64,000 nucleotides of DNA. Origin: Polytrichum commune (taxonomy: Eukaryota; Streptophyta; Polytrichopsida; Polytrichales; Polytrichaceae). The notes beneath the pieces are model-generated. The model searched no databases and was not told where the DNA came from. It saw only the letters and a program-made list of their open reading frames with translations. Position numbers and translations under genes: made by a program. The stretch covers positions 43,787,554 to 43,851,553 of the forward strand of contig OX485803.1 in NCBI GenBank assembly GCA_950295325.1, in the 5' to 3' direction. Positions 15,201 to 56,035 of the stretch are shown here, piece after piece; position 1 is the stretch's first letter, and every line of letters begins with the position of its first letter.

Positions 15201-17244
15201 GATTGATATTGTACGCAAGAACAACCAGTGGAAAATCATAGAAAACCAACTCCCATTGAAAAGTCCCATTGAGTTTAAAGGATGACTCTAATAAGTGTGC
15301 AAACTTTGAAAGAAGCATCAGGAGAGAGAGAGGGAGGGAATAAAAAGCACAGGACCACCCACCTTGTGCAGTTCAGTGCCAACAAGAAGCCGGTCAATCT
15401 CTGATAAAGTCCACACAAAGGGAAGGCACTGTTGAGAAGGAAGGAGCTGCAAGTAGCCATACCATTTTGAGAGCACCCCCAGACTACGCTCATACATCAA
15501 TGCAATCGCAAGCCCTAGACCCCCACCAAATTCTGCTTCCGCGATTATTTCACGAGCCTCGCTGGTCAGTACTGTGAGGCAGGCCTGCTTGGGAATGGTG
15601 GCTATCACATCGCCCTCATGGAGGTCTGTCTGGGATTTCACCCCAATATCTGCCACAGTGTTGCCGACATGAAACGATAGGGCCTCACTGTACTCCACGT
15701 TGTTTTCTCGCATCCAGCGTATGAACCCCCTCAAATGCCTGAAACAGGTTAAAACCAAACAACCTTCAACCTTGTGTTGTGCAAACAGAATGTTGTCCAG
15801 TTTTCCCACACCTCCAGCATGCAGGGTTCCAAACAATGAGATGCCTTGAGCTCATACACAAATGCTAATAATCCTGTCTTATAACTGTTACCCACTAGGC
15901 TCGAGCTGGCCTCAGAAGACTTCAATTGCACAATATGAAAAGAGTAGTGTAATCAAGTGCAGATTTCAACTGTAGTGGCAAATGCACTCCTGCTAGAAAA
16001 TTGTGTGGTTTTTCACCACATAACATTGCAGTGTTGCCCTAAATTTTGGTTTCCGCAACATCCCTTGAAGGACAATAGACTCATTGGATTGTCATTTGCC
16101 TTAGAAGAGTGGTCCAGAAATGCATGCTGATTGATTCTCTTGATGTAGACATACATCATCCCATGCCATGACCCCCTCTGAAAAGACTGCACCATTACAA
16201 CTTCCGGAGAATTGCATTCAGTAGAATTTGGACTTAACTCTAAAGTTCCATGCTGTATCAGTCAAAGCCAGACTTTGATTTGCTAATTATGTAAGTCTCA
16301 AAGAGAGGAAGCCCCTGCTAGATTTCCTTCTGCAACTTGTTCTATGCCTTCACTGAAAATAATCTGAAGGTTGAATTCGCAATTTCACTGGTCATCTGGC
16401 AACAATGACCCACCAAGCAAAATGTATGCCAACCTTCTTGTCCCACATGCCAAAGCCTGACCCTGCACCAATTAAATTCAGCATTATGCAGCTCGGGAAG
16501 GTGGTATGGCATTGGGCTATCCCAAGACCAGGTCTCAAACTTCTGCAGTTTGCCATTCAGCTGAAGATGGCCCGTGAAAGGGAAGCGCCAAGGCACTTCA
16601 ACCAGCATGCGAGCCTCCTAGATCGAAGACTGGACAACATGACCCAATTCATATGCATCGAGGAATCCCCATCAAGGCATTCTACCCACACACAGAGATC
16701 ACAGCTCAAACACCCACAAATAACATCAGGTGCGAATTGCCAAGAATACCAAACCACATAGCACATAACTCTCAAAAACCGTCACGAAAGACAGAGAGAC
16801 GACATGACCTAATTCACAAGCACAAGAATTCCCCATCGCGACATTTTATCCAGCGTCAAAAATTACAGCTAAAACATATACAAACAAACAACATCATTTG
16901 CAAATTACCAAGTGTACCAAACCGCATAGCACACAATTCTCAAAAAACTTCACGAAAGATAGAGAGACAACATGACCTAGTTCACAAGCATGAGGATTCC
17001 CCATCACGGCATTCTACCCACTGTCAAAAACCACAGCTCCAACACCCAGAAACGACATCATTTTGCGAATTTCCAAGAATACCAAACCGCATCACACACA
17101 ATGCTCAAAAACCCTCACAAAGACAGAGACAGACACAAGAGCTCATTGCCTCAACAGCGGAAAGGGAGTCATTTGGTTAATGAAAGAAGATGGACGCAGC
17201 AGCAGCTAAATTACTCACCTGGAGGATTGAGAAGTTGCTGCCAT
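12258..17244 (-). CDS. SETD6-like SET-domain lysine methyltransferase with large charged insert
   Basis: Six exons join in frame to 726 aa: 17244-17219, 15738-15363, 14656-14457, 14308-13570, 13292-12868 and 12672-12258 (stop TGA). The ATG exon encodes only MAATSQSS plus a split codon and ends in a strong GTGAGT donor; the next exon starts in phase with HLRGFIRWMRENNVEYSEAL, a typical SETD6 start. SET landmarks are GDVIATIPKQACLTV, GLGLAIALMYERSLG, FNHK (202-205), YNTYG (449-453) and NAALLHRYGF with the catalytic Tyr at 464. A C-terminal substrate-binding-like part follows. Members of this family methylate lysines of proteins such as ribosomal proteins or transcription regulators. About 210 residues (218-428) are inserted between FNHK and the YNTYG strand: first an Asp/Ser run, then Lys/Pro-rich S/TPKK-like repeats. 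Plant relatives have a short acidic insert here; this one is much longer. A tandem acceptor precedes the last exon. Confidence 0.92.
16637..17140 (+). repeat. Three-unit tandem repeat (about 165-168 bp) in intron 1 of the SETD6-like gene
   Basis: Units begin at about 16637, 16802 and 16970, each with ACATGACC, and share blocks such as AATACCAAACC, GCACACAA and CTCAAAAAC. Both periods are multiples of three, and the plus strand (antisense to the host gene) stays open across all three units from 16653 to 17180 (175 codons). The predicted peptide repeats motifs like PNRIAHNSQK and HDLVHKH. I know no such protein; the open frame could follow from the period alone. Confidence 0.8.
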
Positions 17245-18060: not shown

Positions 18061-18432
18061 TACACTATTATGATATTTAGTGTCATATGGTATTTGATGT
18101 CACTATGATAACTATTCAGATGACACTTCTTATGAATAAGTTTACAAATAGTGTCATGGATGAAGGATGAGTTCATCCATTGGCCAAAACCCTACCTTCT
18201 CTTGTCAGCAACTAGTGATGAAACTTGTCAAGGATGGTTGAAATTTGGATGAAACGTCACTTAGTAAGTGACAGTAATTGCAACACTTTAAATCTATAAT
18301 CCCCCAAAAAAATCAAGAAATGACACATAGTGTTGTGTTAACATTTAGTGTTGGAGATACTATACCACGGTTTACAATTAGTATTGAGCAAGACAATTAG
18401 AATTTGTGATACTAAATATCATATTTAGTGTA
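18061..18432. mobile_element. Small TA-flanked inverted-repeat element, about 370-bp family
   Basis: The ends are TA-CACTATTATGATATTTAGTG on the left and ATATTTAGTG-TA on the right. The interior matches 42310-42692 in reverse orientation and the pair at 30072-30789. Shared blocks include a CAATTACTGTCACTTAC-type motif and GTTTACAATTAGTATTGAGC. It has no coding capacity, so it would depend on a transposase from elsewhere. The TA duplication fits the Tc1/mariner group. Confidence 0.8.
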
Positions 18433-18675
18433 CTATTTCCACTTTAACTAAGGCCTTGCAACTCATGTATCTTCCGCACCACCTCCCATCGGTTGAAAAC
18501 ATCTCTTGCACGCACTCTCGAGGCTATTACAAACCCTTATTTACTAGACTACCATCCTTTCAACTCCAAACATCACTTCCCAATTGTTCAAACCAATTAT
18601 GTTTGAGCCTACACTCAAGCTTATTACAAAGAATGTCTTCACACTTGCAACTCCTTACCATTAGTTCTCTTCCAC

Positions 18676-19074
18676 TACACCGAGTATGGAATTTAATGTC
18701 ACTTACACTATTTGCGAAAGGCCTAAACTAGATGCTTAGAGGTCTCAAAGTGTCGTGCCCGCTTGTTGCCAATATGATTTCATTCAATCTTATGTTTTAG
18801 TATGCAAGGGGAAGATATTCTTGAGCATAGTATTGACCAATGTCACTTATGTACACTTTAGTTAACTTGTAAACCATTGTGTAATATAGGCATGCACCTC
18901 ATAACACTATTGAACATACTCATGCCAAGATATTAGTAAGCACACTTGAACGCCAAGTGTCATGAGTTGGCACTTATGGTGAACTTGTTACTCATCACTG
19001 CAACCTAGCATATGGCTCAAAATAGGGTAAGTGACATTGTTACGCATGTGACACTAAATACCATAAACGGTGTA
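18676..19074. mobile_element. Small TA-flanked inverted-repeat element, about 400-bp family
   Basis: The left end reads TACACCGAGTATGGAATTTA and the right end ATACCATAAACGGTGTA. The interior matches the interrupted copy at about 47490-48738, with shared blocks GGCCTAAACT, GATGCTT, CTCATGCCAA, ATATTAGTAAG, TTGAACGCCAAGTG and CTCAAAATAGGGTA. It is non-coding. Confidence 0.75.
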
Positions 19075-19154
19075 CACAAAATTGTAGTCTTTGAGTATAT
19101 GGATTGGAAATCTATTACTGTTGTGGATCATAAAACAATCCAATGGAAGAGAAC

Positions 19155-19589
19155 TACACCACTTATGGTATTTAGTGTCCCTTTCTTTTTGGAATTACAC
19201 AATGCTATGACTATTTACTATAGATCACATTTTTTACCAACAAGGGTAAACTTGGTTGTTTGGACATTTTGAAAATATGACATCTTTGATTGCCAAAAAT
19301 TAAATTAAGAATAAGACTCTATCGCACTTCATGACTCCTAATAGTAAGTGACATTAAATACCATACAATGTTTATAGTGTTTAATGTCACTTCCTATTTG
19401 GAATTCCACAATGCTATAGCATTTTACTGTTAATGTACATTTTCACCAATCAAAGATGTTCATGGTCTATAATGTTCAAACAACTAAATTGACCTTTTTT
19501 GGCAAAAAATAAATAAAAATGTATAACAAATCATTATAGCATTGTGTAATTCCAAAAAGTAAGTGACACTAAATACCATAAACAGTGTA
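19155..19589. mobile_element. Two adjoining 220-bp-family TA-flanked elements
   Basis: The first copy starts at TA 19155 with CACCACTTATGGTATTTAGTG and reaches about 19365. The second starts there and ends at TA 19589. Both carry the family inner motif GGAATTACACAATGCTAT or its complement next to the ends. Their junction is slightly degenerate, so the exact border between them is uncertain. Confidence 0.7.
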
Positions 19590-30071: not shown

Positions 30072-30789
30072 TACGCTAAATATTGTATGTATTTAGTTGT
30101 CATATGATGCACTAAGTATGATATTCAATGTTCATATGGTATTTAATGTCAATATGGTGACTCTTCAAATGACACTTCTTATGAATAATTGAACAAATAT
30201 TGTCATGGATGATTGAAATTTGGATGAAAAATCACTTGGTAAGTGATAGTAATTGCAACACTGTAAATCTGTAACCCCCCCCAATTAAAAAAGAACTTTT
30301 TTATAAGGAATGACAAGTAATGTTGGGTTAACGTTTAGTGTCGGTGAGACTATACCGCGGTTCACAATTAGTATCAAGGAAGACGATTAGAATTGGTAAC
30401 ACTAAATATGATATTTGGTGTAATACGTATATGTCACTATAGTAACTTTTCTAATGACAATTATGTAACTTTTATGAACGAGGTTACAAGTATTATTGTT
30501 CTTGCTTATTTTTAGTTCATCAAAATGTCAATTGTTGAAACAAAATTTGGGTTAAAATTTTGCATCCAAACATTTTTGTAAATGTATGTTATCATGGGTG
30601 GTTGAAATTTAGATAAAAAAATCACTCAAAAAAGTGGCAAACCTTTGCAACATTGTAAATTCATAAGGCCCAAACCATTTTACATTGAATGACAAATATT
30701 GTTAGGTTTACATTCGGTGTGGGTGACACTACACATGTGGTCTACAATTAGTATTAGACTTGGTAGCACTAAATACAATATTTAGTGTA
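30072..30789. mobile_element. Two head-to-tail TA-flanked elements of the 370-bp family
   Basis: Copy one runs from TA 30072 to TA 30422, copy two from there to TA 30789. Each ends with a GATATTTGGTG/ATATTTAGTG-TA terminus. The interiors match 18061-18432 in the same order, including the GGTTGAAATTT-GGATGAAAA block and CAATTAGTAT. Divergence between the two is high, so they are old. Confidence 0.7.
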
Positions 30790-40189: not shown

Positions 40190-40409
40190 TACACTAAATA
40201 TGATATTTAGTGTCACTTACTATTTAAATTTTCGTAATGCTATATCTATGTATTGCATATCTCATATTGTACCAACAAATTTCAAGTTGGTTGTTTGGAC
40301 ATTATAGAACAATAACAACTTTGCTTGGTAAACAATCACATTAACAATAATAAGTATAGCACTGTGTAATTCCAACTAATAAGTGATGCGAAATATCATA
40401 TTTAATGTA
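40190..40409. mobile_element. 220-bp-family TA-flanked element with perfect palindromic end
   Basis: It runs from TA 40190 to TA 40409. The left end (40192-40212) is itself a perfect palindrome: CACTAAATAT, one central G, then the exact reverse complement. The right end is a mutated version. Inside the ends come CACTTACTATTT and GTAATGCTATA, matching the other 220-bp copies. Confidence 0.82.
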
Positions 40410-40436
40410 CTAATTGAGCTTATGCATGATGCTTAA

Positions 40437-40944
40437 GAGCCACTTCACACACGAGCCAAGACCTGTGACCATGAAACTGTAAGAGCCCAAAAGAAAGTGT
40501 CCAAAGACAGGCCCAAGACACCTCCAAAATCATGTAGTATGGTCACGAACCCTCAAGTGTACTGTGAAGTCATATGTGACCCGGCCCTCAACCAAATGCT
40601 ATTTCAATAGAAAAAATCTATTCATGCAGATCCTCACACATGATAAAATAGAATAAACCAGCGGTTGTGAGCGTTCGGAGTGCCATGGTCCCCCGGTGAT
40701 GCGTTGAGCCTACCATCAAGGAAGTGTTTTTTGAAAACAATCCAAGTGACCATGAAACATGATGCGATTCGATGCCATGTAAGAATCAATCCATGTAGAC
40801 TTTACATCCATCTTTCATTCACATACTCCGTTGGTCCCTCAAGCGTAGCGTGAAGCGAGCTTGGACCGGCTCCGCCTTTTCCACCAACGAGAGTGCTTGA
40901 AGTGTAGTGGTCACGGGGTCTCAGTCTCGTGTGTGAAGTGGCCC
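40437..40944. mobile_element. Harbinger/Tourist-like element, copy 2 (inverted)
   Basis: The left end GAGCCACTTCACACACGAG and the right end CTCGTGTGTGAAGTGGCCC are inverted repeats. TAA flanks both sides (40434-40436 and 40945-40947). The interior is the reverse complement of copy 1 at 37532-38012, including the block around CGGAGCCGGTCCAAG. It is about 27 bp longer. Confidence 0.87.
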
Positions 40945-41173
40945 TAAAGACTTCCTTCGTATGCACACTTTGCAGCATTTGTGGCGAAATTGCATGACGT
41001 TTCTTCACACCACGTGCAAACAAGGCACCACAACATGAAGATTCTTGCATACCTTAATTTAGTGAAATTCTTCTTGTTTGCAATTACAATATATATATAT
41101 ATTCCCCAACGGTCACAGCAATAAGTGGCTGCTACATTCTCCCCTGCTACTGAAGCAGCCCCTACCTCCTCCT

Positions 41174-41876
41174 CAATGTCCGGGGAGAACCGGTGGTTAG
41201 TTGCAGATGAACCGGTTGAGTTCGAGAAATAACCGGTGGAAGGTCAAGACTTCAGGAAATTCACCGTTCATTTTAGAGGAATCTATAGAATATACTTCAA
41301 ATTAATGAAGAAAAAAAACCAAAAGATGTCAACACGTGACTGGTTGGAGTGACCGGGGAGAGTTTTGGGCATAACCGGTTGAGATCCTAGTGTTTGCAAG
41401 TCCAACCGGTTACATGTTGACATCCTCCGGTTTTCCTTGACGAAAATGGGGTATATTCTTCTATAGATTCCTCTCAAATGACCGGTAATTTTAATGCAGT
41501 CTTGAACTTCAACCGGTTATTTTTCAAACTCAACCGGTTCATCTACAACTAACCGCCGGTTCTCCCCGATCATTGACCGGTTGGAGTTGGAAACGCTAGG
41601 CTCTTGACCGACTATGCTCAAATCCTCCCCAAACACGGCTCCGCCCAGTGATCGGGGAGATTTATGGGCATAATTGGGTTGAGAAATCCTATTGTTTCCA
41701 ACTCCAACTGGTTGCATGTTGACATACTTTGGTTTTTCTATATTAAATTGAGGCATATTCCATGGATTCGTCTAGAACGATGGGTAATTCTCCGGAAGTC
41801 TCCAACTTCAACCGGTTATTTCTCAAACTCCACCGGTTCATCTGCAACTAACTGCCGGTTCTCCCCAATCATAGGC
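41174..41876. mobile_element. Foldback element cluster rich in ACCGGTT
   Basis: 41174-41575 folds on itself: the left arm from CAATGTCCGGGGAGAACC pairs with the right arm ending CTCCCCGATCATTG, over roughly 170 bp with mismatches. AACCGGTT-type motifs recur in both arms. 41580-41876 carries further pieces of the same element: one left-interior fragment, then a nearly complete right half from TGATCGGGGAG to CTCCCCAATCAT. Single-arm relatives lie at 58228-58440 and 58766-58960. Confidence 0.75.
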
Positions 41877-42148
41877 TCTGCGTACCAGCAGCAAGCGGGT
41901 GGGCCTTCAAACAAGGGCATATAATAATAAATTGCCTTTTGAATGGGGTTCCATGTGGGGACGGGGCTTGTGGAATCTAAGCTATGGTGAGGCAACTTGC
42001 AAGACACCTCACGTTTGTGCCCATGAATCGTAACGAATCGGCAAAACGGAGCCGTCCACACTCCGATCACCCTCAAGGGTCATTTACCTTACCCTAGGGT
42101 ATGGTTGAGTGGTTTGAGGAAGGTAGAAAAGATAGGAATACAAGTGAA

Positions 42149-42800
42149 TGCACTTATTTTGTCTAATTAGTGTGGGTTATTGTTCGGAGTTACGTGTTGT
42201 TATAAATACTACTTCTTCTTCTTTTTTCTTTTCGTTTTTAATTTTTTATCAACATTGCCGTTTTTACCAACTATGTAGTTGTATCATAGTTTTCGGTGTG
42301 CATACTAACTACACTAAAATATGATATCTAGTGTCACCAATTCTAAGTGTCTTGCTCAATACTAATTGTAAACCGCGGTGTAGTGTCACCAACACTAAAT
42401 GCTAACCCCACATTATTTGTCATTCCTTGTAGATCATTTTGGGGATCATAGATTTACAGTGTTGCAATTACTGTCACTTACCGAGTGGCTTTTAAAAAAA
42501 ATCTAAGTTTCGATCATCCATGACAATCTTTCCTCACGAGCTGCTGGCAAGAGAAGGTAGGGTTTTGGCCAATGGATGAACTCATCCACCATCTATGACA
42601 ATAGTTGTTCACTTATTTATAAGATGTGTCGACCAAAAAGTTAGTATAGTGACATGAAATACCATATGACACTATGTATCATATTTAGTGTACTTATGTT
42701 ATATGGGTAAAAAATGATACTCTCAATAAAATGATATAGCAAATGTGTGATTCCAAATGGTAGCCCACACTGACCCACACTGATTAGACAAATTAGTGTA
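42149..42800. mobile_element. 220-bp-family element interrupted by a 370-bp-family element
   Basis: The outer element starts near 42149 (CACTTATTTTGTCTAATTAGTG) and ends at TA 42800 (CTGATTAGACAAATTAGTGTA). It is the sister of 39577-39798. It is split after CATACTAAC-TA by the element at 42310-42692 and resumes with TA-CTTATGTTAT. Confidence 0.85.
42310..42692. mobile_element. Inserted 370-bp-family TA-flanked element with verified borders
   Basis: The element is bounded by TA at 42310-42311 and at 42691-42692. Comparison with the uninterrupted site at 39690-39710 shows that exactly one extra TA plus 379 bp was added, which proves TA target-site duplication. The interior is the reverse of 18061-18432. 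It has no coding capacity. Confidence 0.9.
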
Positions 42801-43591
42801 TTGGTGCACTAGATTGGGAGTAGAATGATTCTTATGTGGACCCAAAATGGTTGATTGTTAAAGTGGTGTCCGAAAAAGGATGCAGTGATTGGCCATGTTG
42901 GTCTTGTTCCACACCACTTGGGATCACTTTTGGGTGTTGTTGGGTCAACCGTTTCGTGTGCATTCAACATGCACAATAGGATATTTTGATGCTCGAATTA
43001 GAAAGACTTTATTGTGCAAGTAGGGGATTTGACTTACTTGCCTCTTTGGGAGAATGTGACAAATTATTTCCAAGGAATCAAATTATGAAACAACATGCAG
43101 TCCTCGTTGCTTCTTCTACTTCATCTCTGAAAAACATCGCACAATTTTTCAAGCCACTCTCTTTATGGCCGAATTAACTATTTTCTTCTTATTTCCTTCC
43201 TTACTTTCTTTTGGTTCTACTTATACAGTGAAGGCATTATAAATGCTAACCACAACCACAACTTCAATCACCTCATAGAGTTTCATTCGTCAATCCCACT
43301 TTTCAGCACGCTTCAATCATTCTTGGGGTGGGTTTTTCATGCTCGTATGGCACTACTGCATGGATTCAAGGTTGAGGTTTGCGGAGAAATTTGAGAAGGC
43401 AACCACTTTTACAATACAATTTGAGGCCAACAAGGATTGTTTACACTGGAGTAATAGGGATGGTTGTGGTTATGTGTGTAAGTATAAATTCCTCTGGTTC
43501 TATTCCATGGAGAAGACATAGAATATGCTAGCCACAGCCACGTCCACCATCTTACCCCATGAAGTGGTTGTTCATGTTCATGCAACACCAC

Positions 43592-43812
43592 TACACCATT
43601 TATGGTATTTAATGTAACTTACTATTTAGAGTTATGTAGTGCTATAACTTTTTGCTAAGACTGTAAGTTTTTACCAAGTAAAATCATTTATGTTGTATAT
43701 TGTCCACATAGCCTACTTAATATTTGTTGCTAAAAAATGTAATCTATATCACAAAGTTATAGGCTTGCGTAATTCCAAATAGTAAGTGAGACTAAATATC
43801 ATAAATGGTGTA
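43592..43812. mobile_element. 220-bp-family TA-flanked element, well preserved
   Basis: It runs from TA 43592 to TA 43812. The ends CACCATTTATGG and CCATAAATGGTG mirror each other; the inverted repeats extend through GTAACTTACTATTT / AAATAGTAAGTGAG and GTGCTATAACTTT / AAAGTTATAGGCTTGC. This is the cleanest 220-bp copy in the window. Confidence 0.88.
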
Positions 43813-45898: not shown

Positions 45899-47489
45899 AA
45901 ATCCACATCAATACACCCCCCGTCTACAAAATAGGGAGTCCTTACCGGAAAAGTGCAGGCTTCTCATGAACTTGTCCCAACAAGTGGGTTCCGTATCGTA
46001 TAAAGACAGTTCTTGATATTTCAATTGGAATTTCAACAAAAATTGCGTTCACAAAACACACACACACACACACAAAGTGGGACCGTCCCACACAAATATC
46101 TTCTTTGCGGGCTTTACCTTGGGACCGGCTCCTTTTCACCCTGCCGCCGCTCAATTGCCTTGCTTCCGGGTTGGCCGGATGGCCCCCAAATCATTCGATC
46201 GGGCACAAGGATTCCATCCTAGTGGCCGAGATATTTCAATGCGGACGGAAAAGGCCCTAGCGGGTGGCGGGAATCGAGGATAAGTGCTCGGAGCCGTAAC
46301 CGGTAAGAGAATGGGGTTATCCTTGAAAGGTCGGATATAAGGGCCACCTCTAGGAAACATCTTCACTTATGTTGGTAAATTCCAATCTTGTATAGTTTGC
46401 TCCTTTTTGTACAAGGACGTGAATACATGTTCGATGAGGTTGGTGTTTTATTTTTATTTTTTTATATTCTCAGTTTCACATAACTTTAGACATGTTTTCA
46501 AACCTCAGTCAATTTCAGAATCAAGTCGGCTCCATGATTCAAGCAAGTAGATTCTCAATGATATGTGGTGACCCACAGTTGGGTAGTGAACCGGCTATAA
46601 CCTCAGCATGCAAATTCGTTTTGAAGTCAATATATAACGGTCTAGCTTCGCACAACTTCACTTGTGTAATATGTTTCTATATTACTAGTCAGTTGCCGGT
46701 GGTCACGAAATTGCACTGAATAGTACTCACGTTGAGTATACCCAAAGTAGAAGGGACGTAATGCTCAAGGGATTCTCAACCTGGCAATGATTGATACACA
46801 ACCAAGTAATATTATGTCACCGAAGTTTAGTCCGAAGTTTGATCATTTTCTCTCTCTTGGGGACATGCCACTGCACTATGAGAACTTCTCGAGAATCGCA
46901 AGAACACCTACGAGTTTGGTGAAATTGACGTGTTGTATAAATACGAAGTGTTCTTTTAAACCAGGCTCGAGTTTTTGACACCAACACACTAAACAACAAA
47001 ATGCACCTCCAAACATCGGATGGTTACCAATGTCATTGTAAGGGATAACTTCAATGCAAACGACTTTTGGTAAGGCCGTTGGCCTTTGTCCCCATTTCTA
47101 GTAAAACGGATGTAAATGGCGAGAGTGAAACCGCATGGTCCCGCACTTTGTACATCTAGGCGTACACTCCACCACCGCCCGCCTACCCCCTATTCAATAT
47201 TTAGAGCTCCCTTGAGTGCCCGGCTTATTAGCCTATGAGTTTTTATAGACGGAGGGCTTGTCGCGGCCCCCATAGTACTACACAAGCCTTACACCGCACG
47301 CTAGTAACTTAATTCCGTTTCTTAATTGGCCGTTAAGGGTTGCAATTCGACCGTCCTAAACAGTCACTTGTTGGGGGTGGACGTTTGGGAGGGCGAACCG
47401 GGGAAGGGAGAGTGATTGTCATTATTGTAGAGTTCGGAGGCTGCTATTTAACTTCTAAGTCGGGGCTAAAGACCCCAAATTAGTCGACA
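45899..47489. other. Unassigned stretch with a GC-richer patch
   Basis: 46080-46360 is richer in G and C than its surroundings, with no match to a protein I know. A TATA-like TATAAATA at about 46936-46943 lies about 60 bp before an ATG at 47001, but that frame closes after 12 codons. 47385-47490 carries a short relative of the repeat at 36660. Nothing else is supported. Confidence 0.4.
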
Positions 47490-47764
47490 CCGTTAATGGT
47501 GTTTAGTGTCACGTGCACTATTTGTGAAGGGCCTAAACTGGATGCTTCGAGGTTTCAAAGTGTTACGTGCATTAACTGTTCATATGATACTATTTGTCAA
47601 CATGAGTAATTTTTTAAGAGTGAATCTTTATTTATGTTATGATATTTAGCGTAGCACATTGGGTTAATTGGGATGATAGTTATTTCATTTTATTATGCAA
47701 GAGGAAGGTAAAAATGAACATACTAATGGGATATGTCATGTGATTGTAATCTAGTATGTAAGAG

Positions 47765-48469
47765 TGTAACAAACCTCCCACAAGTTTGTCACCAACGTTC
47801 ACAATAACAATTATCAATCAAAATAACGAGTTGAAGAACTCAATTTATTTTCCTTCTAACGTCTAATTACAAACGTAGACCAAGGAGGTCTTGGTCTAAG
47901 GCTCTAAGCTCAACTACCCGAGCATAGGAGAGAGACAAAGGCATTATTTTTACTTTCTATTTTCACATATAGTAAAAGTGTTCTATTCATAACTCTATCT
48001 TTTAATTCTACTATGAATCTTCTATCTTTGGTTCTTCTAGAACCTTCTTCCATCTTTTAACTCGATCTCATTCTTCCACTTGGAATTGTCTAATTCCAAC
48101 TTGGTTCATCCAACCATTCCGCTAGTTGGAATTGTTTAATTCCAACTAGATCTATCTATTCATTGAGAGTTGTCTAACTCCAATGAATAGCATTCATCTT
48201 TCCAATTATGGAGTGGTCTGACTCCAGTCCACCTCATCGAGAGTTGTCTAACTCATCTGCACGTGTTCTCAATGTGGAATGGTATAATTCCAATGCACTA
48301 AATGTGGAGTTGTCTAACTCCAGTGCACATGTTGTCAATCTGGAGTTGTCTAACTCCAATCCATTCATCTTCAACAGGGAGTTGTCTAGTTCCCATCATC
48401 CTCTGCTTACACACTGGAACATGTGGTTATTATATTCAATCATCCATCCATATTTCTAATTACCTTACA
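47765..48469. mobile_element. Solo LTR with 5-bp target duplication
   Basis: The segment starts TGTAACAAACC and ends TTACCTTACA, giving TG...CA ends and a 5-base inverted terminus TGTAA/TTACA. AAGAG flanks it on both sides (47760-47764 and 48470-48474). Length is 705 bp. No internal retrotransposon region or second LTR is nearby, so it is the product of LTR-LTR recombination. It sits inside an older small element, which confirms the order of events. The orientation of the parent element is not settled. Confidence 0.85.
48030..48394 (+). repeat. Array of small hairpins with conserved GTCT loop inside the solo LTR
   Basis: About nine units spaced roughly 20-65 bp apart fold as short stems. Clear cases: 48080-48099 (TTGGAATT-GTCT-AATTCCAA), 48122-48149 (12-bp stem, loop GTTT), 48158-48188 (GTCT loop, one bulge), 48210-48225, 48241-48254 (GAGTT-GTCT-AACTC), 48275-48292, 48305-48322, 48341-48358 and 48377-48394. 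A related stem without the loop motif is at 48030-48044. Arm sequences vary between units, but changes on one arm are matched on the other. Confidence 0.85.
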
Positions 48470-48849
48470 AAGAGGAAGTTATTATTGAGCTCACTAATGC
48501 CAAGTGTCATTTGTGTACACTCCAATCAGCTTGTAGACCATTATGTAACATACGTATACACCTCACAACACTTTTGAACAAACTCATGCCAATATATTAG
48601 TAAGTGCAATTGAACGCCAAGTGCCATGAGGTGACACTAATGATGAGGTTGTTGATCATTGGTGTAACTAGCATACGCCTCAAAATAGGGTATGTGACAT
48701 TATTACGCATGTGACACTAAAATGCCATCAACGACGTAGTGAACTTACATGAGGATGAATAAGCAACCAACCATCCAAATAGGGGCATGTTGTTATTATT
48801 ACCCCTTTAGTGGGTGTTAGGAAATCAAACTACATAGTTGGTATGGGGC

Positions 48850-49402
48850 TACACTATTTATGGTATTTAGTGTCCCTAGCTCAATAGTGTCACTTGGGCC
48901 TTATGTTTAGGTCTATGCGTATTTTATGTGCGTTGTCAATGTGATCTCAATTAGTATTACTAGACATGTTAAAGTAAAGTATATGTCATATATACATATT
49001 TGGGTGACCGCCAAACATTATTCATTTTTGGACATGTGAGATTCCATATCTTTTTGTTCATATCACTTCCTCATCCATATGCTGACATAATCACACTTAT
49101 TTTGTTAACCTTGTGCAAAGCAAAGTGGGACCGCAAGTGATTTCTCAATCAAGGAATAAAAAAACAAAAAACAGTGGTTTTAGTCCATGGTATTTAACGT
49201 TACTTAATATTTGGAGTTACGCCATGCTATAAGTTTCTTTTGTGGATTGTATGTTTTTAGCGAGTGAAGTCCCTTATAACCTATAATGCTCAAACAATAT
49301 ATATGACCTTTCTTGGAAAAAAAAGATGAAAATCTATAAGATGAATTTATACCATTGGGTAGTTCTAAAAATTAGATGACACTAACTACCATAAATGGTG
49401 TG
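48850..49402. mobile_element. TA-flanked element remnants (220-bp type)
   Basis: A left end (TACACTATTTATGG, then TATTTAGTG) lies at 48850. A nearly complete 220-bp-type copy lies at about 49180-49402 (CATGGTATTTAACGTTACTTA to TACCATAAATGGTG). Inner motifs GGAGTTACGCCATGCTATAAG and TTTATACCATTGGGTAGTTC match the family. The relation of the first end to the second copy is unclear. Confidence 0.6.
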
Positions 49403-50574
49403 GTGTAAACTTGCCCCAAGACAACATGCTAATTTACCATTACTTGCCAACAAGTGGTGCAAAGTGACCTAGAGGGGGGTGCACTATATGCACCTCTCTT
49501 AACCATTTATTGCTCACTGATGCATTCCCTTGAACTTGGAACTTTCATAACACCTTGGATATCCAGGGCAATTCAACTCACTATTGTCAATGTATTTTAA
49601 GTTCGACTACTTGTACAATGTGGGAACCGATTCTATTTTGAAGATATGGGAAGAAAATCCTCATTGTTTCAACATAATTTGAGAAGATTTAATAGTTGCA
49701 AAGTTGAGGTTCTCAAGTTGTGGCAACTTAGTGATTTTTTTCTAAATGTAGATGACATGCTAGATGAGGTCACTCAATAAGAATGGATAGATAGATAGAC
49801 ATATAGATAAATACCCCCCCACACCCACACACACATACAAGAATATAAGTGATGAGGTGAAATCTAAACTAAGCGCTTATATGCTTATTCTAGAGGTGGT
49901 CAAAGTTCATTGACCGGGTGATGAGTGTCTCTCACAACGAGCGTGAATGTCATTTTTTGAAGAATGTATGGTTCAGGGATGAATTTACAATGGGCAACAC
50001 CCACATGCAAGAAAAACCGCTTTCTTATTCAATGTCTTATTAACATGTTATGAGCTTCAAATTCACTTTGGAGTATCATTATCCTTTAAATTATAACTTA
50101 TTTGAGTAGGAATTCCACTTATCTATTCTTGTAATACAAAAGAATCTCGAGTGGGTGGGTGGGGGGGGGGGGGCATATGAAGACATGACGTGACTTTATG
50201 ATGACTTCTCTTTTTTCGAGAGAGCCCATGGACCTTTCACGGACAATAAGGGTTAACATCACCACTTGCTCAAGGCCATGGCTAGATGTCTTGCTCTTTG
50301 GGTTGCACCCCACCATTTCTCCATAAGGTGGCAACACAAACAACCGTGTCATAACCAAAAACTAACAACTTAAGATTTCTCGTGATGGCTGACAACCCAA
50401 AGACCATGACTAAAAGAAATCTACATCACTTCACAAAGGCCTTGGTTATGGAACATAATGTAAATATGACTTAGACCATGATGTAGTATGTCTAAATGAA
50501 AATAAGGATTATCCATTTAAAGATTTGTTTCTTATATTATTAATTCATATAAATAGGAGATACTTAGAGTAGGT
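49403..50574. other. Gene-free stretch left of the LINE
   Basis: No exon is recognisable. It includes simple repeats (about 49782-49835, CA/CCCA type) and a G-run near 50161-50173. A block near 50287-50305 (GTCTTGCTCTTTGGGTTGCA) is a relative of repeats near 32790 and 56745. Confidence 0.45.
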
Positions 50575-51191
50575 ATGGTTGCCTTCATTTTATGGCGAGA
50601 CAACCTATTTGAGTTTCTCTTGGAGCAAAGTCTAGACGATCCCCAAACATTTCTCATTTTTGGACATATAGGCTTCATGTTGTTTTCATGTTCCTCACAA
50701 ACAGAACATCACAACAAGGTGGTTTTTTTGTCACGTAAACTTGCTAAGAAGTGGCAAAGGCACCTCAATACATATCACCTCATCAAAAAAACCATCTACA
50801 TTGTACAAAACAATCCACACTGGCAAGTCCACCCCATCCTAAATGATATACGAAACCATCAACACACCAACATTCCACATCCCCTTGTTACACTGACACC
50901 CCCTACTGAGTGGATTGACACACTCGCAACCATCGCAAAATATGCCAATAAAGAAGCCCGTAAAATCACCACAAAATATACCAAGGATTGCATTCTCAAG
51001 GCCGTTTCAAAATATCGTCAACTGTACGAAAAAAACCCCAAAAAGATAAACCGAAAAGTTTTCAAAAACACTGAACCCTCCCCTCTGGACTCCATCATTG
51101 ATAGACAGAACAATATACTCACCAACCCACACGACATCGCGTCAGAAATCCACATACAACAATCCATTAGTAATCGCCCTACAGTTCCCAC

Positions 51192-52451
51192 ATGCCTACA
51201 TCAAACCATACACCCACCCACTGCACGTGTGGCGTCTGCCAATATCCATGGCATGATTTAGAAGGATATATAATTGACAAACGAGGAGAGCCCCAAATCC
51301 CCCTCCATAAGTATTTTGACCAAGAAACTTACGACCTCTGTCTTAAAAACCTTAGTAATAACAAAGTCCCAGGCCTCGACAAAATACCCAACTCAATTCT
51401 AAAGAATATGCCCCCTCGCTTTCACAAGTTACTCTTCCTATTTTTCAAACATTGCTACAGACAAAAACAAATTCCAGCATCGTGGAAAACAAGTCTAACA
51501 GTTCTCTTATACAAAAAAGGTAATCCATCCCAATTAACCAATCACATATCTATTGCCCTAGCTAACACCATATATAAATTTTACACGAGTACATTAACCT
51601 CTATCCTCTCATCATACGGAGAAAGACACCAGATCTTACATGATAGTCAAGAAGGGTTCAGAGCCGAGAGAAGCACCTCCCGACAAATACAATTACTAAT
51701 CGCAGCACTTGAAGATGCAAGACTCACAAATCATGATATATATATCCTATACATTGACTTCAAAAACGCCTTCAGCTCCATTGATCACGCCAGACTCTTA
51801 GCCCTAATGAAAGATCTGGGATACCCCATTGACTCCATTAACCTTATCGGTAACATATACTCTCAATCCTCCACAATCTTCACTGGCGAACACTTCGGTA
51901 AAACCTTACCCATTCCCATCTAAAGAGGTACAATACAAGGTGATACCCTTAGCCCGTATTTATTTATCATATTCCTAAAACCCCTCCTTAGATGGCTCCA
52001 ACACAGAAATAATGGATACACTTTTGGTACATCTAAAGTTCAAATATCATCCGCAGCATATGCCGACGATCTAGCAGCAATAGCCAACAAACTAGAAACC
52101 TTACAAACACAACTTAACAAATTAGACAAATTCTGTGTTTGGGCAGGCATGGATCTTGGTATCTCCAAGTGTGCCATCACTGGATGCCCTAACAAATCCA
52201 AACTCCACCCCACAACCTTCAAAGCTCTAATCCAATCCACCAATATAAACTACAGGAACCAACCCATTCCCGCCTTAAACCAACATGAACCATACACATA
52301 TTTAGGAATAAATCTTACTCCATCACTCAAATGGAGAACACAAATAAATACCACTACAGCTAAAGTGATCAAACAATGTCAAACACTCGTAAACTGCCCA
52401 GCTACTATGAAATAAAAAATAAACATGGCAGATACTGTTATACGTGCATGA
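51192..52451 (+). pseudogene. LINE reverse transcriptase, broken by stops
   Basis: One frame carries the RT motifs in order: NNKVPGLDKIPN, WKTSLTVLLYKKGNP with HISIALANTIYK, SQEGFRAERSTSRQ, the catalytic YIDFKNAFSSID, RGTIQGDTLSPYLF, the catalytic AYADDL and PYTYLGINLTPSLKW. A TAA at 51921-51923 falls exactly before RGTIQGDTLSP; TAA at 52413 and TGA at 52449 follow the thumb region. Both catalytic motifs are intact. The linker before it (50575-51260, KYRQLYEKNPKKI to DRQNNILTNPHDI) is in another frame. The stops show the copy is no longer able to move on its own. Confidence 0.92.
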
Positions 52452-53892
52452 ATAACATACAGTTTTTATGCAGTGCCATACTCCATTCCAGCTATAAAAA
52501 AACTTGATAAAAAAATAATCGCCGTTCATAAAACGATCTGTGGAATTCCCAAGTGCACATCTAACATCGCTACACAACTCCCACACAACCTATTCGGAAT
52601 TGAAGCCTTCTCACTCCAAAATGCCTACTTACGATGCATTGGAGAACAACTACAAAACGCCCTTAATGACAAAGGTCGACTTGGGAAAATATATACCGGT
52701 CTATTGCAATTTATACTCGCCAAATATGGGGGTTCTAAAGAAATCACCTGCATTAAATATCATCATTGTGTTCGCTCACCCATCACCCGAACCCTATTCC
52801 TCCTCAAACATAAAGCCGGAGTCCATCTAAAAAGTACAATAAACAACTTCCTAATAGACCCATCCCCACTTGAAAATGCATGGATGCAAGAAGCACAACT
52901 GCTCCATGGCCTAAACCCAAGCATCTCAATTAAATTACTACATAAACTACTAATACATAATATAACCACACTAGCCCAACTTACTATGCCTAATGGTACC
53001 ACTCTGATGAATGCGGACGACTTCAAAACCTACCATTCCACTCCTTCTAAACTTATCAAAAATGCACTTCATATAGCTAATCAATTATTATGTCTCCCCC
53101 CTTGCAACCAATGCCCCATACCATGCCAACAACACCACCCTCCAGGATCCCTAAAAAACAAATATATAATAAGACACCACAACATCCTCCCTCACCCGAC
53201 CACCGCACCCGTACACCCTCCTAACCCCCCCATCTCCCATTTACCCCCCACTCCTAATAATATGCTAAAGGATCCCCACAAATTCCCTATACAAAAAATA
53301 CTCGACCACAAACAAAACCAATCCAATGACCATAACGGAATTCCCCCGCACAGTCACGTCATACTTATGTCAATGGACCACAACAAGCAACCACACATAT
53401 CACAAATGGCGTACCCAACGGGACCTATATCCCTACTGTGATACAAATACATGTAATCACAACACAAACCTACTTACCCATTACTACAGGGAACGACAAT
53501 ACAAACATTTCTTAAACATTATTAAGGCCTATTTCTTCACAGCACGACATAAAGACACAAGATACGTCACACCCACTACAATAATTCCACTACTACATAT
53601 CTCTATCACTGAATGCAACCCAGAAAATGACATTGAAACAAACTCTAATACTATCCAAATACAATTTGATGTTGCTCACATATATGAAGACAATGGCCGA
53701 CACCTCATCACCATCCTGAAAACTAGACTACTCTGGTTATGAAAACAATACCAACAGGCTAAAAGCACCACACACGGCCTGGAACCGTCCACCCAATCTT
53801 TCGAAACCGAAATTGTTTGGCTTTATCAACGCTACAAATACCGTATCCCAAAAAATGATCCACTCAAACGGGCCCAATATACAATACCCACT
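52452..53892 (+). pseudogene. LINE post-RT linker with Cys cluster, frameshifted
   Basis: From 52452 the RT frame continues after its stops as PYSIPAIKKLDKKII, AGVHLKSTINNFLIDPSPLE and a Cys group, PPCNQCPIPC (about 53097-53130). It then changes frame between 53326 and 53441 and runs on through a TGA at 53740. The segment resembles the long spacer after RT in related elements. I assign no catalytic function. Confidence 0.7.
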
Positions 53893-54440
53893 CCAATATT
53901 AGATCTCCTAATCACAACATTCAATATTAGCCATTCATACTTTTCATCCCCCGTTACATGCCCCACACAATTTACCCAGTTCTACTCTCCATACTCGCGA
54001 GATATAATATTTGGATCCCTCGGCAAAGCGTTTGGCCATAAATGGCAGGGAATCGGGTACGCACACCCTCACAACGCAACAGACTTACAACAAGCTATCC
54101 ACTGGGCTCGTATGGCGGCCCAAAATGACCCACATACAATCACTATAATTATCTCCCCAGATATTGATTGGTACCAAAATCCCAACCCGCATGCAGGCCC
54201 CTTCCCGGACACGCATGTCATTGCCCATTTTGCCGCGGATACGCTCACGTATGATGAACCCACAATACCACCCGAGCTCAACATCACCAGAAAAAAAACC
54301 CTCTACAGTACAAATATTTTGCATCCACCACCAAAACAATAGCATTGGCACATACGAACAAATGAAATTACTAAACGATACAACAAATAACCTCCAAATA
54401 CTACACAGCCACACCCGAATTGCACCACCTACCCCTCCTA
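53893..54440 (+). pseudogene. Dam-type adenine methyltransferase-like segment of the LINE
   Basis: Between the linker and RNase H the frame reads FSSPVTCPTQFTQFYSP, RDIIFGSLGKAFGHKWQGIG, AHP, LQQAIHWARMAAQNDP, ITIIISPDIDWYQN, HVIAHFAADTL and, after a frame change in the A-run near 54290, VQIFCIHHQNN. The spacing (SP, then D-FGS, then W-G-x(3)-HP, a helix ending WA-AA, then a hydrophobic strand ending in P-D-W-Y) follows phage Dam-type N6-adenine methyltransferases, where W-G leads to an NPPY motif and then a helix and a strand ending in P. The catalytic NPPY position reads AHPH, so activity is doubtful even before the frameshift. This assignment is my inference from pattern, not a database match. 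Confidence 0.45.
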
Positions 54441-56035
54441 ACATCACGGTTAACCCTAGTAAAAAATGGTCTAAATTAACTTACCCCAATACAATCCCAT
54501 ACAATAACCCCCAAGTCCCCCCACTCCCACATTACCACACCAACTTACCCCTAAAATTCCACCCCCAATTTAGTTACTACACTGATGGCTCCTTTATAAA
54601 ATCCAAAGAAATTGCCCCCGGGGAATGGAGAAGAGAAAAAGCTGGATATGGTATCTACAGCCCCAAAGGCCTAAATATCGCCAAAAGATTACACGGCCAT
54701 CAAAACATACTACGCGCAGAAATGATGGCTATACACGACACTCTACAAATAATAAATACACAATTTCCCAATGAACCCGCCTACATATTCACAGACAGTC
54801 TAAATGTATTATATCTACTCAACACACAAATAAAAAACCCCACCCTCCATAATAGTCATCCCGACCAAATCACACTCAACTCCATGGTAGAAATCCTTCA
54901 ACACCGAACACAACCAATCACTTTATACAAAGTTAGAGCCCACGTTAACATTGACGGGAATGAAAAAGCCGATACACTGGCAAAACAAGGGTTAGAATTA
55001 GAACACCGAATTGCTATCCTCCCTCACGAACATGCCCACGCCACCCCATACTATTATCAAAAAGACGTGTGGGCCTCAATGGCAGCCGTCCCAGACAAAG
55101 GTCCAGTAAGATTCTTAGAAAAACAAATTAAAAAGTATGATAGGGAAAACAATATTGCACTCATGGCCACACAAACCCCGAACGCATGTAAATGGACAGA
55201 AAATGTCGACATAGACAAAGAATTATCAAACGAATTTTGGACAAATCCCTTAATCACCGACAAACAAAAATCTTGCCTTATTAAATTTCGCACCGGAACA
55301 TACATGGGTAATGCGAGGAAACAAATTTTCTTCGGTCACCAAAGATACCCCTCTATTACGTGCTCCATTTGCAATTCAACCGACCCAGATACTTGGCTCC
55401 ATGTACTACTTAAATGTCAACAACAACATCTACACTCACTACGCGTCAAAAGACATAACAAAGCAATTGGAGAAATTAGGAAACTCCTAATCTCATCCGA
55501 AAAATCCCGTTGCTTTACTCTCATGAATGCCGGAATCTTCAACAATAATCCCCAAGAGGACACAGTCCCCGGCTGGCTACTCCCCTGCACATGTAACACA
55601 CAAAGATGCCACTGTAACGCAAGATTCCGACCTGATATACTTTGTGTTAATGGCCTCCCATATCAAAATGACCCACCAACTGATATTGACCCCACCCTCA
55701 CCATACAATTTATCGAATTCACATACTACAACGATAGATTCTCCCGAGAGGCACTCGAAGCCAAAAACAACAAATACAAGCCGCTAATTGATAGTATTGC
55801 TTCCAGGGGATGGAAAATCGAACCACTTATTGTCATCACCGCTGGTGCCAGAGCTACTACCCACATACCCTCTATGAAATCACTCGAAGACAATCTCAAA
55901 ATACCCATGACTGCCATAAAAAATACCTTTAAAAATATCAATACCATTGCAATACAATATGCCATGTCCATCCTCCTCCATAAAAGGAGGATTGAAAATC
56001 ACCAACCGCTACCCCAAAATCTAGACCCTCCATAA
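54164..56035 (+). CDS. LINE 3' open frame: RNase H, CCHC knuckle, restriction-like endonuclease
   Basis: An unbroken frame of 623 codons; the first 40-odd codons are probably out-of-frame shadow, and genuine coding starts near 54290. RNase H (about 54570-54990) keeps D (54584, YTDGSF), E (54719, LRAEMMA), D (54794, FTDSLN), H (54941) and D (54971, DGNEKADTLAKQG). A CX2CX9HX4C knuckle follows (55361-55417). A second Cys group (CTCNTQRCHC, about 55585-55620) leads to RPD (55628-55636), IEFTYYNDRF with the acid at 55715, and AKNNKYKPL with Lys at 55763: the PD-(D/E)-K pattern of the endonuclease that nicks target DNA in R2-like and Dualen-like elements. All catalytic residues remain, in contrast to the broken RT upstream. 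Confidence 0.88.
   Translation: MIGTKIPTRMQAPSRTRMSLPILPRIRSRMMNPQYHPSSTSPEKKPSTVQIFCIHHQNNSIGTYEQMKLLNDTTNNLQILHSHTRIAPPTPPNITVNPSKKWSKLTYPNTIPYNNPQVPPLPHYHTNLPLKFHPQFSYYTDGSFIKSKEIAPGEWRREKAGYGIYSPKGLNIAKRLHGHQNILRAEMMAIHDTLQIINTQFPNEPAYIFTDSLNVLYLLNTQIKNPTLHNSHPDQITLNSMVEILQHRTQPITLYKVRAHVNIDGNEKADTLAKQGLELEHRIAILPHEHAHATPYYYQKDVWASMAAVPDKGPVRFLEKQIKKYDRENNIALMATQTPNACKWTENVDIDKELSNEFWTNPLITDKQKSCLIKFRTGTYMGNARKQIFFGHQRYPSITCSICNSTDPDTWLHVLLKCQQQHLHSLRVKRHNKAIGEIRKLLISSEKSRCFTLMNAGIFNNNPQEDTVPGWLLPCTCNTQRCHCNARFRPDILCVNGLPYQNDPPTDIDPTLTIQFIEFTYYNDRFSREALEAKNNKYKPLIDSIASRGWKIEPLIVITAGARATTHIPSMKSLEDNLKIPMTAIKNTFKNINTIAIQYAMSILLHKRRIENHQPLPQNLDPP

What the first reader, a model, noticed from the sequence alone, without database searches (positions are those of the whole stretch)
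48030..48394. Hairpin array with conserved GTCT loop and matched arm changes inside a solo LTR
About nine short stems follow each other within 365 bp. Seven keep the loop GTCT and one has GTTT. The arms differ between units (GGAATT/AATTCC in some, GGAGTT/AACTCC in others), yet complementarity is kept, and the last unit (GGGAGTT-GTCT-AGTTCCC) pairs fully only if two G-U pairs are allowed, that is, as RNA from the plus strand. Matched change points to selection on structure rather than simple tandem copying. It might be a binding platform, an RNA-level signal of the parent retrotransposon, or a small-RNA source.
Basis: partly seen in the sequence, partly recalled or inferred. Interest (0 to 1): 0.75.

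Follow-up and report, generated by a model that had tools for sequence, protein, structure and literature searches.

The report
Palindrome array in a retrotransposon LTR
Nine small mirror-image DNA boxes sit in the leftover end of a jumping gene, most like the repeated control boxes already described in some plant retrotransposons; it is a real and tidy example, but probably no new kind of thing.

Summary
Nine co-oriented units of GGARTT-GTCT-AAYTCC lie at 48082-48393 and nowhere else in the window. They lie in a genuine solo LTR, 47765-48469 (705 bp, TG...CA, target-site duplication AAGAG); a related element at 18.8 kb shows the empty site. The units are discrete boxes: mean pairwise identity is 82% inside the 16-mer and 38-40% in the flanks. 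Arms pair in 92.1% of 63 cells, but only 2 of 7 pairs show changes on both sides, and 4 of 9 units carry a true arm mismatch. A plus-strand RNA structure is not supported: wobble-type departures go both ways (3 against 1), and folding is as strong on the minus strand and as DNA. A double-stranded palindrome bound by a dimeric protein predicts the same matched changes. Palindromic box arrays in LTRs are published for Sireviruses (PMC2829016). Best reading: a palindromic cis-regulatory array, new in sequence, known in kind. Sirevirus membership is not shown; three tested traits fail. Other LTR copies could not be compared: the genome search did not complete (21 attempts).

The parts
47765..48469 (.). 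solo LTR, 705 bp, TGTAAC...TTACA; orientation unresolved, minus slightly favoured
   Evidence: TG..CA ends and flanking AAGAG repeats; empty-site paralogue at 18798 ff.
47760..47764 (.). target-site duplication AAGAG, left
48470..48474 (.). target-site duplication AAGAG, right
48082..48097 (+). unit 1 GGAATT-GTCT-AATTCC, 8 bp contiguous stem with flank
48128..48143 (+). unit 2, loop GTTT, 12 bp perfect stem with flank
48166..48181 (+). unit 3, 15 bp stem with one bulge when flanks are included
48210..48225 (+). unit 4, G.G mismatch next to the loop
48240..48255 (+). unit 5, 5 bp stem, then an A.A mismatch
48276..48291 (+). unit 6, loop GTAT, G.A mismatch next to the loop
48306..48321 (+). unit 7, consensus, 7 bp stem with flank
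48342..48357 (+). unit 8, consensus, 7 bp stem with flank
48378..48393 (+). unit 9, two G.T pairs, outermost pair G-C instead of T-A
47964..47971 (-). TATA-like TATATGTG (one mismatch to TATAWAWR), candidate promoter if the LTR reads on the minus strand; one of five such sites on that strand, none on plus; the bare word TATA occurs three times on each strand
47844..47849 (-). AATAAA, candidate poly(A) signal if the LTR reads on the minus strand; none on plus
47487..48733 (.). DNA-element-like repeat that received the LTR; 47487-47570 and 48470-48733 match 18677-18758 and 18806-19069

Best explanation
The array is a cis-regulatory palindromic repeat array of an LTR retrotransposon, left behind in a solo LTR. 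Each box is an inverted repeat with a mostly fixed 4-base spacer (GTCT). In the living element the boxes would sit upstream of the LTR promoter as a multi-site platform for a host DNA-binding protein, probably one that binds as a dimer, and drive or gate transcription. Shown here: the solo LTR, the nine boxes, their conservation against their spacers, and partial arm matching. Inferred: the U3 position (needs the minus orientation), protein binding, and a role in transcription. Any small-RNA production from the folds would be a side effect, as proposed for maize Sireviruses.
For: Solo LTR with TSD and empty site. Nine co-oriented units confined to the LTR; the best model match outside the array has E = 0.43. 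Mean pairwise identity 0.818 in the box against 0.38 (12 bases of right flank) and 0.397 (10 bases of left flank). Spacing varies (46, 38, 44, 30, 36, 30, 36, 36), so the box rather than one fixed tandem period is what is kept. Precedent: palindromic boxes in 13 Sireviruses, at least 8 copies per element and 3 to 14 per 3' LTR (8 or more in 11 of 13), 117 of 127 LTR copies in the upper half of the LTR (PMC2829016, section 9 and passages). In the minus orientation the array lies at 77-388 of 705 (from the coordinates), followed by a TATA-like site at 499 and AATAAA at 621. [quoted passage not shown]
Against: The orientation is not proven; in the plus orientation the array would lie at 318-629, in the second half. 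The 4-base spacer is asymmetric yet conserved in 7 of 9 units, which a symmetric dimer site does not need by itself. PMC2829016 itself says that experimental confirmation of a regulatory role is lacking for its boxes. No protein is known to me that binds this box. Only one copy of the LTR was available, so conservation across the family is untested. Local duplication explains part of the likeness (related linkers 5-6 and 7-8).
Confidence: 0.6

Rival explanations
1. RNA-level structure: the array lies in the transcribed part and forms a row of GUCU-loop hairpins used for packaging, reverse transcription or processing.
For: Paired cells 92.1% against 84.0% in shuffles, 0 of 500 as high; two G.T pairs in unit 9; z -6.0 on plus RNA; conserved asymmetric loop; longer matched flanks in units 2 and 3 (P 0.005 and 0.0003; the other 7 of 9 units 0.12 or more).
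Against: Fold z-scores are stronger on the minus strand and in DNA; wobble departures in both directions and 4 of 9 units with true mismatches; the minimum-energy RNA fold of the region does not keep all nine hairpins; number of pairs changed on both sides not above shuffles.
Confidence: 0.15
2. Substrate for small RNAs: transcripts fold into hairpins that are diced and feed silencing of the element; the array persists for another reason.
For: Small-RNA hotspots over palindrome clusters in maize Sirevirus LTRs, reported in passages of PMC10760457 and PMC5311732; the 2016 paper they cite is not held.
Against: In 7 of 9 units the uninterrupted stem is 5-8 bp (with unit 9 counted with its two G.T pairs), shorter than the 21-nt criterion used in PMC10760457; no small-RNA data could be examined.
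Confidence: 0.1
3. Mutational by-product: inverted repeats spread by replication slippage, and hairpin-guided template switching or conversion keeps the arms alike without selection.
For: Linkers 5-6 and 7-8 are related, so local duplication did occur; matched change at one pair could stem from few events; longer stems in units 2 and 3 fit hairpin-guided copying.
Against: Boxes stay 82% alike while flanks are 38-40% alike; the non-palindromic loop is also kept in 7 of 9.
Confidence: 0.15

Closest known systems
Sirevirus repeated motifs (RM boxes) in Ty1/copia elements (OPIE-2, PREM-2, Osr8, Tnd-1 and others; PMC2829016)
   Same: Array of many short palindromic boxes with dyad symmetry in the LTR (3 to 14 per 3' LTR there, 9 here); box sequence specific to the element; boxes 66.5-100% identical within an element by that paper's measure (82% mean pairwise here); possible place upstream of a TATA-like site. 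That paper found the boxes absent from the classic Ty1/copia elements it compared, which speaks for a Sirevirus source.
   Different: No CGG-CCG core (Tnd-1 lacks it too); arms separated by a mostly conserved asymmetric GTCT; no CpG enrichment (o/e 0.23 in the array); no run of 3 or more C in the last 70 bases in either orientation; LTR 705 bp.
Palindrome clusters of maize Sirevirus LTRs as small-RNA hotspots (2016 paper seen only as cited in PMC10760457 and PMC5311732)
   Same: Palindromic array in the LTR with strong predicted secondary structure.
   Different: The maize consensus CACCGGACNNNGTCCGGTG is longer and GC-richer; small RNAs not tested here.
Tnt1 U3 tandem BII boxes (recalled; the search returned no paper)
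   Same: Repeated U3 boxes acting as transcriptional activators, from memory.
   Different: Fewer copies and a different sequence, from memory; not tested.
Conserved Hairpin Site of fungal GalEa Copia elements (PMC5445492, passages)
   Same: Inverted repeat in a non-coding end region of a retrotransposon.
   Different: A single hairpin just after the 5' LTR where the primer binding site is missing, not an array inside the LTR.

Membership tests
Solo LTR | TG...CA termini | tested here: met
   TGTAAC...TTACA
Solo LTR | target-site duplication | tested here: met
   AAGAG on both sides
Solo LTR | insertion shown by an empty site | tested here: met
   flanks with one TSD align without gaps to 18798 ff., 44 of 57 identical
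Solo LTR | no second LTR copy nearby | tested here: met
   blastn of the LTR against the window: outside the LTR only short matches of E 0.95 or worse
Sirevirus | palindromic RM array (at least 8 copies per element) | tested here: met
   nine units in this one LTR
Sirevirus | CGG-CCG core of the RM (absent also in Tnd-1) | tested here: not met
   core is GGARTT/AAYTCC
Sirevirus | RM cluster forms a CpG island | tested here: not met
   CpG o/e 0.23, GC 0.402 in 48070-48400
Sirevirus | C-rich integrase signal about 21 bp from the LTR end (17 Sireviruses in PMC2829016) | tested here: not met
   no run of 3 or more C in the last 70 bases, either orientation
Sirevirus | TATA box downstream of the RMs, mid-LTR | tested here: inconclusive
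   TATATGTG at 499 of 705 in the minus orientation, one of five one-mismatch sites; orientation unknown
Sirevirus | PBS, multiple PPTs, gag-pol phylogeny | not testable with these tools
   solo LTR; the genome search for full copies did not complete
Structured RNA element | covariation across independent copies | tested here: inconclusive
   only paralogous units of one copy: 2 of 7 pairs with changes on both sides, 263 of 500 shuffles reach this; covariation score reached by 2 of 500
Rfam families | match at gathering score | tested here: not met
   0 matches in the window

The most novel reading that the evidence does not exclude
A row of nine co-oriented hairpins with a conserved GUCU tetraloop works in the element's RNA as a multivalent binding platform (for the element's own Gag or a host RNA-binding protein): a repeat-based packaging or localisation signal, which the passages read here do not describe for plant LTR elements.
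Probability: 0.1. Interest if true: 0.6.

Novelty: new member of a known kind. Interest (0 to 1): 0.3.

Why it matters
It adds a clear case, without the CGG-CCG core, of a retrotransposon LTR that carries many palindromic boxes. If full-length relatives prove not to be Sireviruses, palindromic box arrays would be a convergent solution in LTR promoters rather than a mark of one genus, and the tension between promoter boxes and foldable transcripts could be tested in another lineage.

Tried and rejected
Genome copies: the genome search on the window's own assembly was tried 21 times with the same request and never answered. So covariation across copies, copy number, orientation, PBS and PPT stay untested.

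Other collections: a two-unit pattern gave 0 stretches in viral contigs and 1 in genome contigs, a Flavobacteriaceae MAG. That stretch (L001) holds repeats with a hairpin of similar arms and loop and nothing else in common that I could see by eye; judged coincidence. The LTR had no match in plasmids at E 0.01; phages and E. coli genomes were not searched. None of these collections is expected to hold LTRs of a plant.

Rejected: simple tandem repeat (within the array TRF reports only 48271-48328, 1.9 copies); chance; known RNA family at gathering score; tRNA gene (none); strand proof from G.T pairs. Density of exact stems of 6 bp or more is high in the array (11 in 331 bases) but not the highest of the window: overlapping stretches around 25.5-26.0 kb, a simple-repeat tract, have 14-20.

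Orientation by TATA-like sites and AATAAA: minus favoured, but weak.

Literature: eight searches ran (two found no paper). One search failed. I opened four papers and saw passages of each (PMC2829016, with section 9 in full; PMC10760457; PMC5311732; PMC5445492). PMC3601003 was seen only in a listing, because the passage search failed on a short term. No listed title or shown abstract start, and no passage opened, mentions a GTCT-spaced box of this kind; the searches match words, not sequences, so this is no proof that it is unpublished.

Full report
What is there. The window holds nine 16-base units of the form GGARTT-GTCT-AAYTCC on the plus strand between 48082 and 48393. With up to two mismatches there are 9 matches, all in this stretch; 100 dinucleotide-preserving shuffles of the window give a mean of 0.23 and at most 3. 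A covariance model built from the nine units recovers all nine on the plus strand at E below 1e-4, as it must by construction; the best match outside the array has E = 0.43. Loops are GTCT in seven units, GTTT in unit 2 and GTAT in unit 6. Start-to-start spacing is 46, 38, 44, 30, 36, 30, 36 and 36.

The host of the array is a solo LTR. It runs from 47765 to 48469, 705 bp, begins TGTAAC and ends TTACA, and has AAGAG on both sides. It lies inside a repeat related to one at 18.7-19.1 kb: 82% over 84 columns on the left, 81% over 265 on the right. Left flank plus right flank with one AAGAG removed aligns without a gap to the paralogue at 18798, 44 of 57 positions identical, which shows the empty site. 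A MAFFT alignment of longer flanks instead places part of the paralogue against an earlier, similar stretch in the left flank, so the left flank seems to carry an older local duplication as well. Outside the LTR itself, blastn of the LTR against the window gives only short matches of E 0.95 or worse.

Boxes against spacers. Mean pairwise identity over all nine units is 0.818 in the 16-mer, 0.38 in 12 bases of right flank and 0.397 in 10 bases of left flank. The units are therefore discrete boxes and not simple tandem copies, although linkers 5-6 and 7-8 look related, so local duplication played a part.

Pairing. On an alignment of the nine units with seven pairs, 92.1% of 63 cells form a standard pair, against 84.0% in shuffles (0 of 500 as high). 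The covariation score is 0.282 against 0.163 (2 of 500), and cells with changes on both sides are 5 against 2.0 (2 of 500). Against this: the number of pairs with a change on both sides is 2, reached by 263 of 500 shuffles, and further pair types are reached by 218 of 500. The tool warns that shuffles ignore relatedness, and these units are paralogues. The main matched change is the third pair from the loop: A-T in units 1, 2 and 6, G-C in units 3, 4, 5, 7 and 8, G.T in unit 9. The seventh pair is T-A in six units and G-C in unit 9. Four units (3, 4, 5, 6) have core pairs that are neither Watson-Crick nor G.T; in unit 3 a one-base bulge restores a 15-bp stem. Outside the core, units 2 and 3 have longer matched flanks than random pairs of LTR stretches (P 0.005 and 0.0003, 20,000 draws); the other seven do not (P 0.12 or more).

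Strand. Over all units there are three G.T cells on plus, one A.C cell (G.U on minus) and four others, which is no strand signal. The 331-base region 48070-48400 folds better than all 100 shuffles on plus RNA (z -6.0), minus RNA (-7.95) and plus DNA (-9.6), as a DNA inverted repeat would.

Orientation. AATAAA occurs only on the minus strand of the LTR, at 621 of 705. Sites with one mismatch or none to TATAWAWR occur only on minus, five in all, one of them at 499; the bare word TATA occurs three times on each strand. In the minus orientation the array spans 77-388, upstream of the site at 499, a U3-like layout. This is weak; PBS and PPT are needed.

What it is like. PMC2829016 (section 9 in full, other passages) describes palindromic repeated motifs in 13 Sireviruses: at least eight copies per element, 3 to 14 in the 3' LTR (8 or more in 11 of 13), 117 of 127 LTR copies in the upper half of the LTR, with CpG islands upstream of a TATA box. 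Box sequence differs from element to element, and the paper reports the motif absent from the classic Ty1/copia elements it compared. The array here matches in number, symmetry and box-wise conservation. Three Sirevirus traits were tested and not met: the CGG-CCG core (also missing in Tnd-1), CpG enrichment (o/e 0.23 in the array, 0.40 in the LTR), and a C-rich stretch near the LTR end (no run of 3 or more C in the last 70 bases in either orientation). I therefore do not file it as a Sirevirus. It may still work like those arrays. PMC10760457 and PMC5311732 (passages; [quoted passage not shown]

Mechanism. The best-supported view is a DNA-level array of palindromic protein-binding boxes that controls LTR transcription. 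That step is inferred from precedent and anatomy; binding and activity are not shown, and the 2010 paper says experimental confirmation was still required for its own boxes. RNA-level function, small-RNA substrate and mutational by-product remain as rivals. The organism is not identified by any search; that it is a plant is my inference from the general make-up of the sequence.

Limits. The decisive test, other copies of this LTR, could not be done because the genome search did not complete (21 attempts, listed under Tried and rejected).

Noticed in passing
18069-19580, 30135-30780, 40199-43803, 47495-49393: A dispersed motif close to TATGGTATTTAGTGTCAC occurs 20 times on both strands with up to 3 mismatches (shuffles mean 0.11, largest 1), often at the ends of palindromic or repeated blocks; it looks like the terminus of a non-autonomous DNA element family, some copies inverted or nested.
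   Followed up: partly
50557-56035: Broken LINE-like element on the plus strand in several frames, with reverse transcriptase matches (PF00078) in two frames and RNase H (PF00075) further on; the end of the last frame looks to me like a zinc-knuckle and restriction-like endonuclease region, from memory only.
   Followed up: partly
L001:4290-4520: A Flavobacteriaceae MAG has repeats with a hairpin of very similar arms and the same GTCT loop; probably coincidence.
   Followed up: no
47828-47841 and 47876-47898: Two further inverted repeats elsewhere in the LTR: GAGTT-GAAG-AACTC, with the same inner arms as the array but another loop, and TAGACCAAG/CTTGGTCTA (read; the second lies within I6).
   Followed up: no
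16633-17129: Tandem repeat of a 168-base unit, 3 copies, which lies in one open frame on the plus strand (16578-17180).
   Followed up: no
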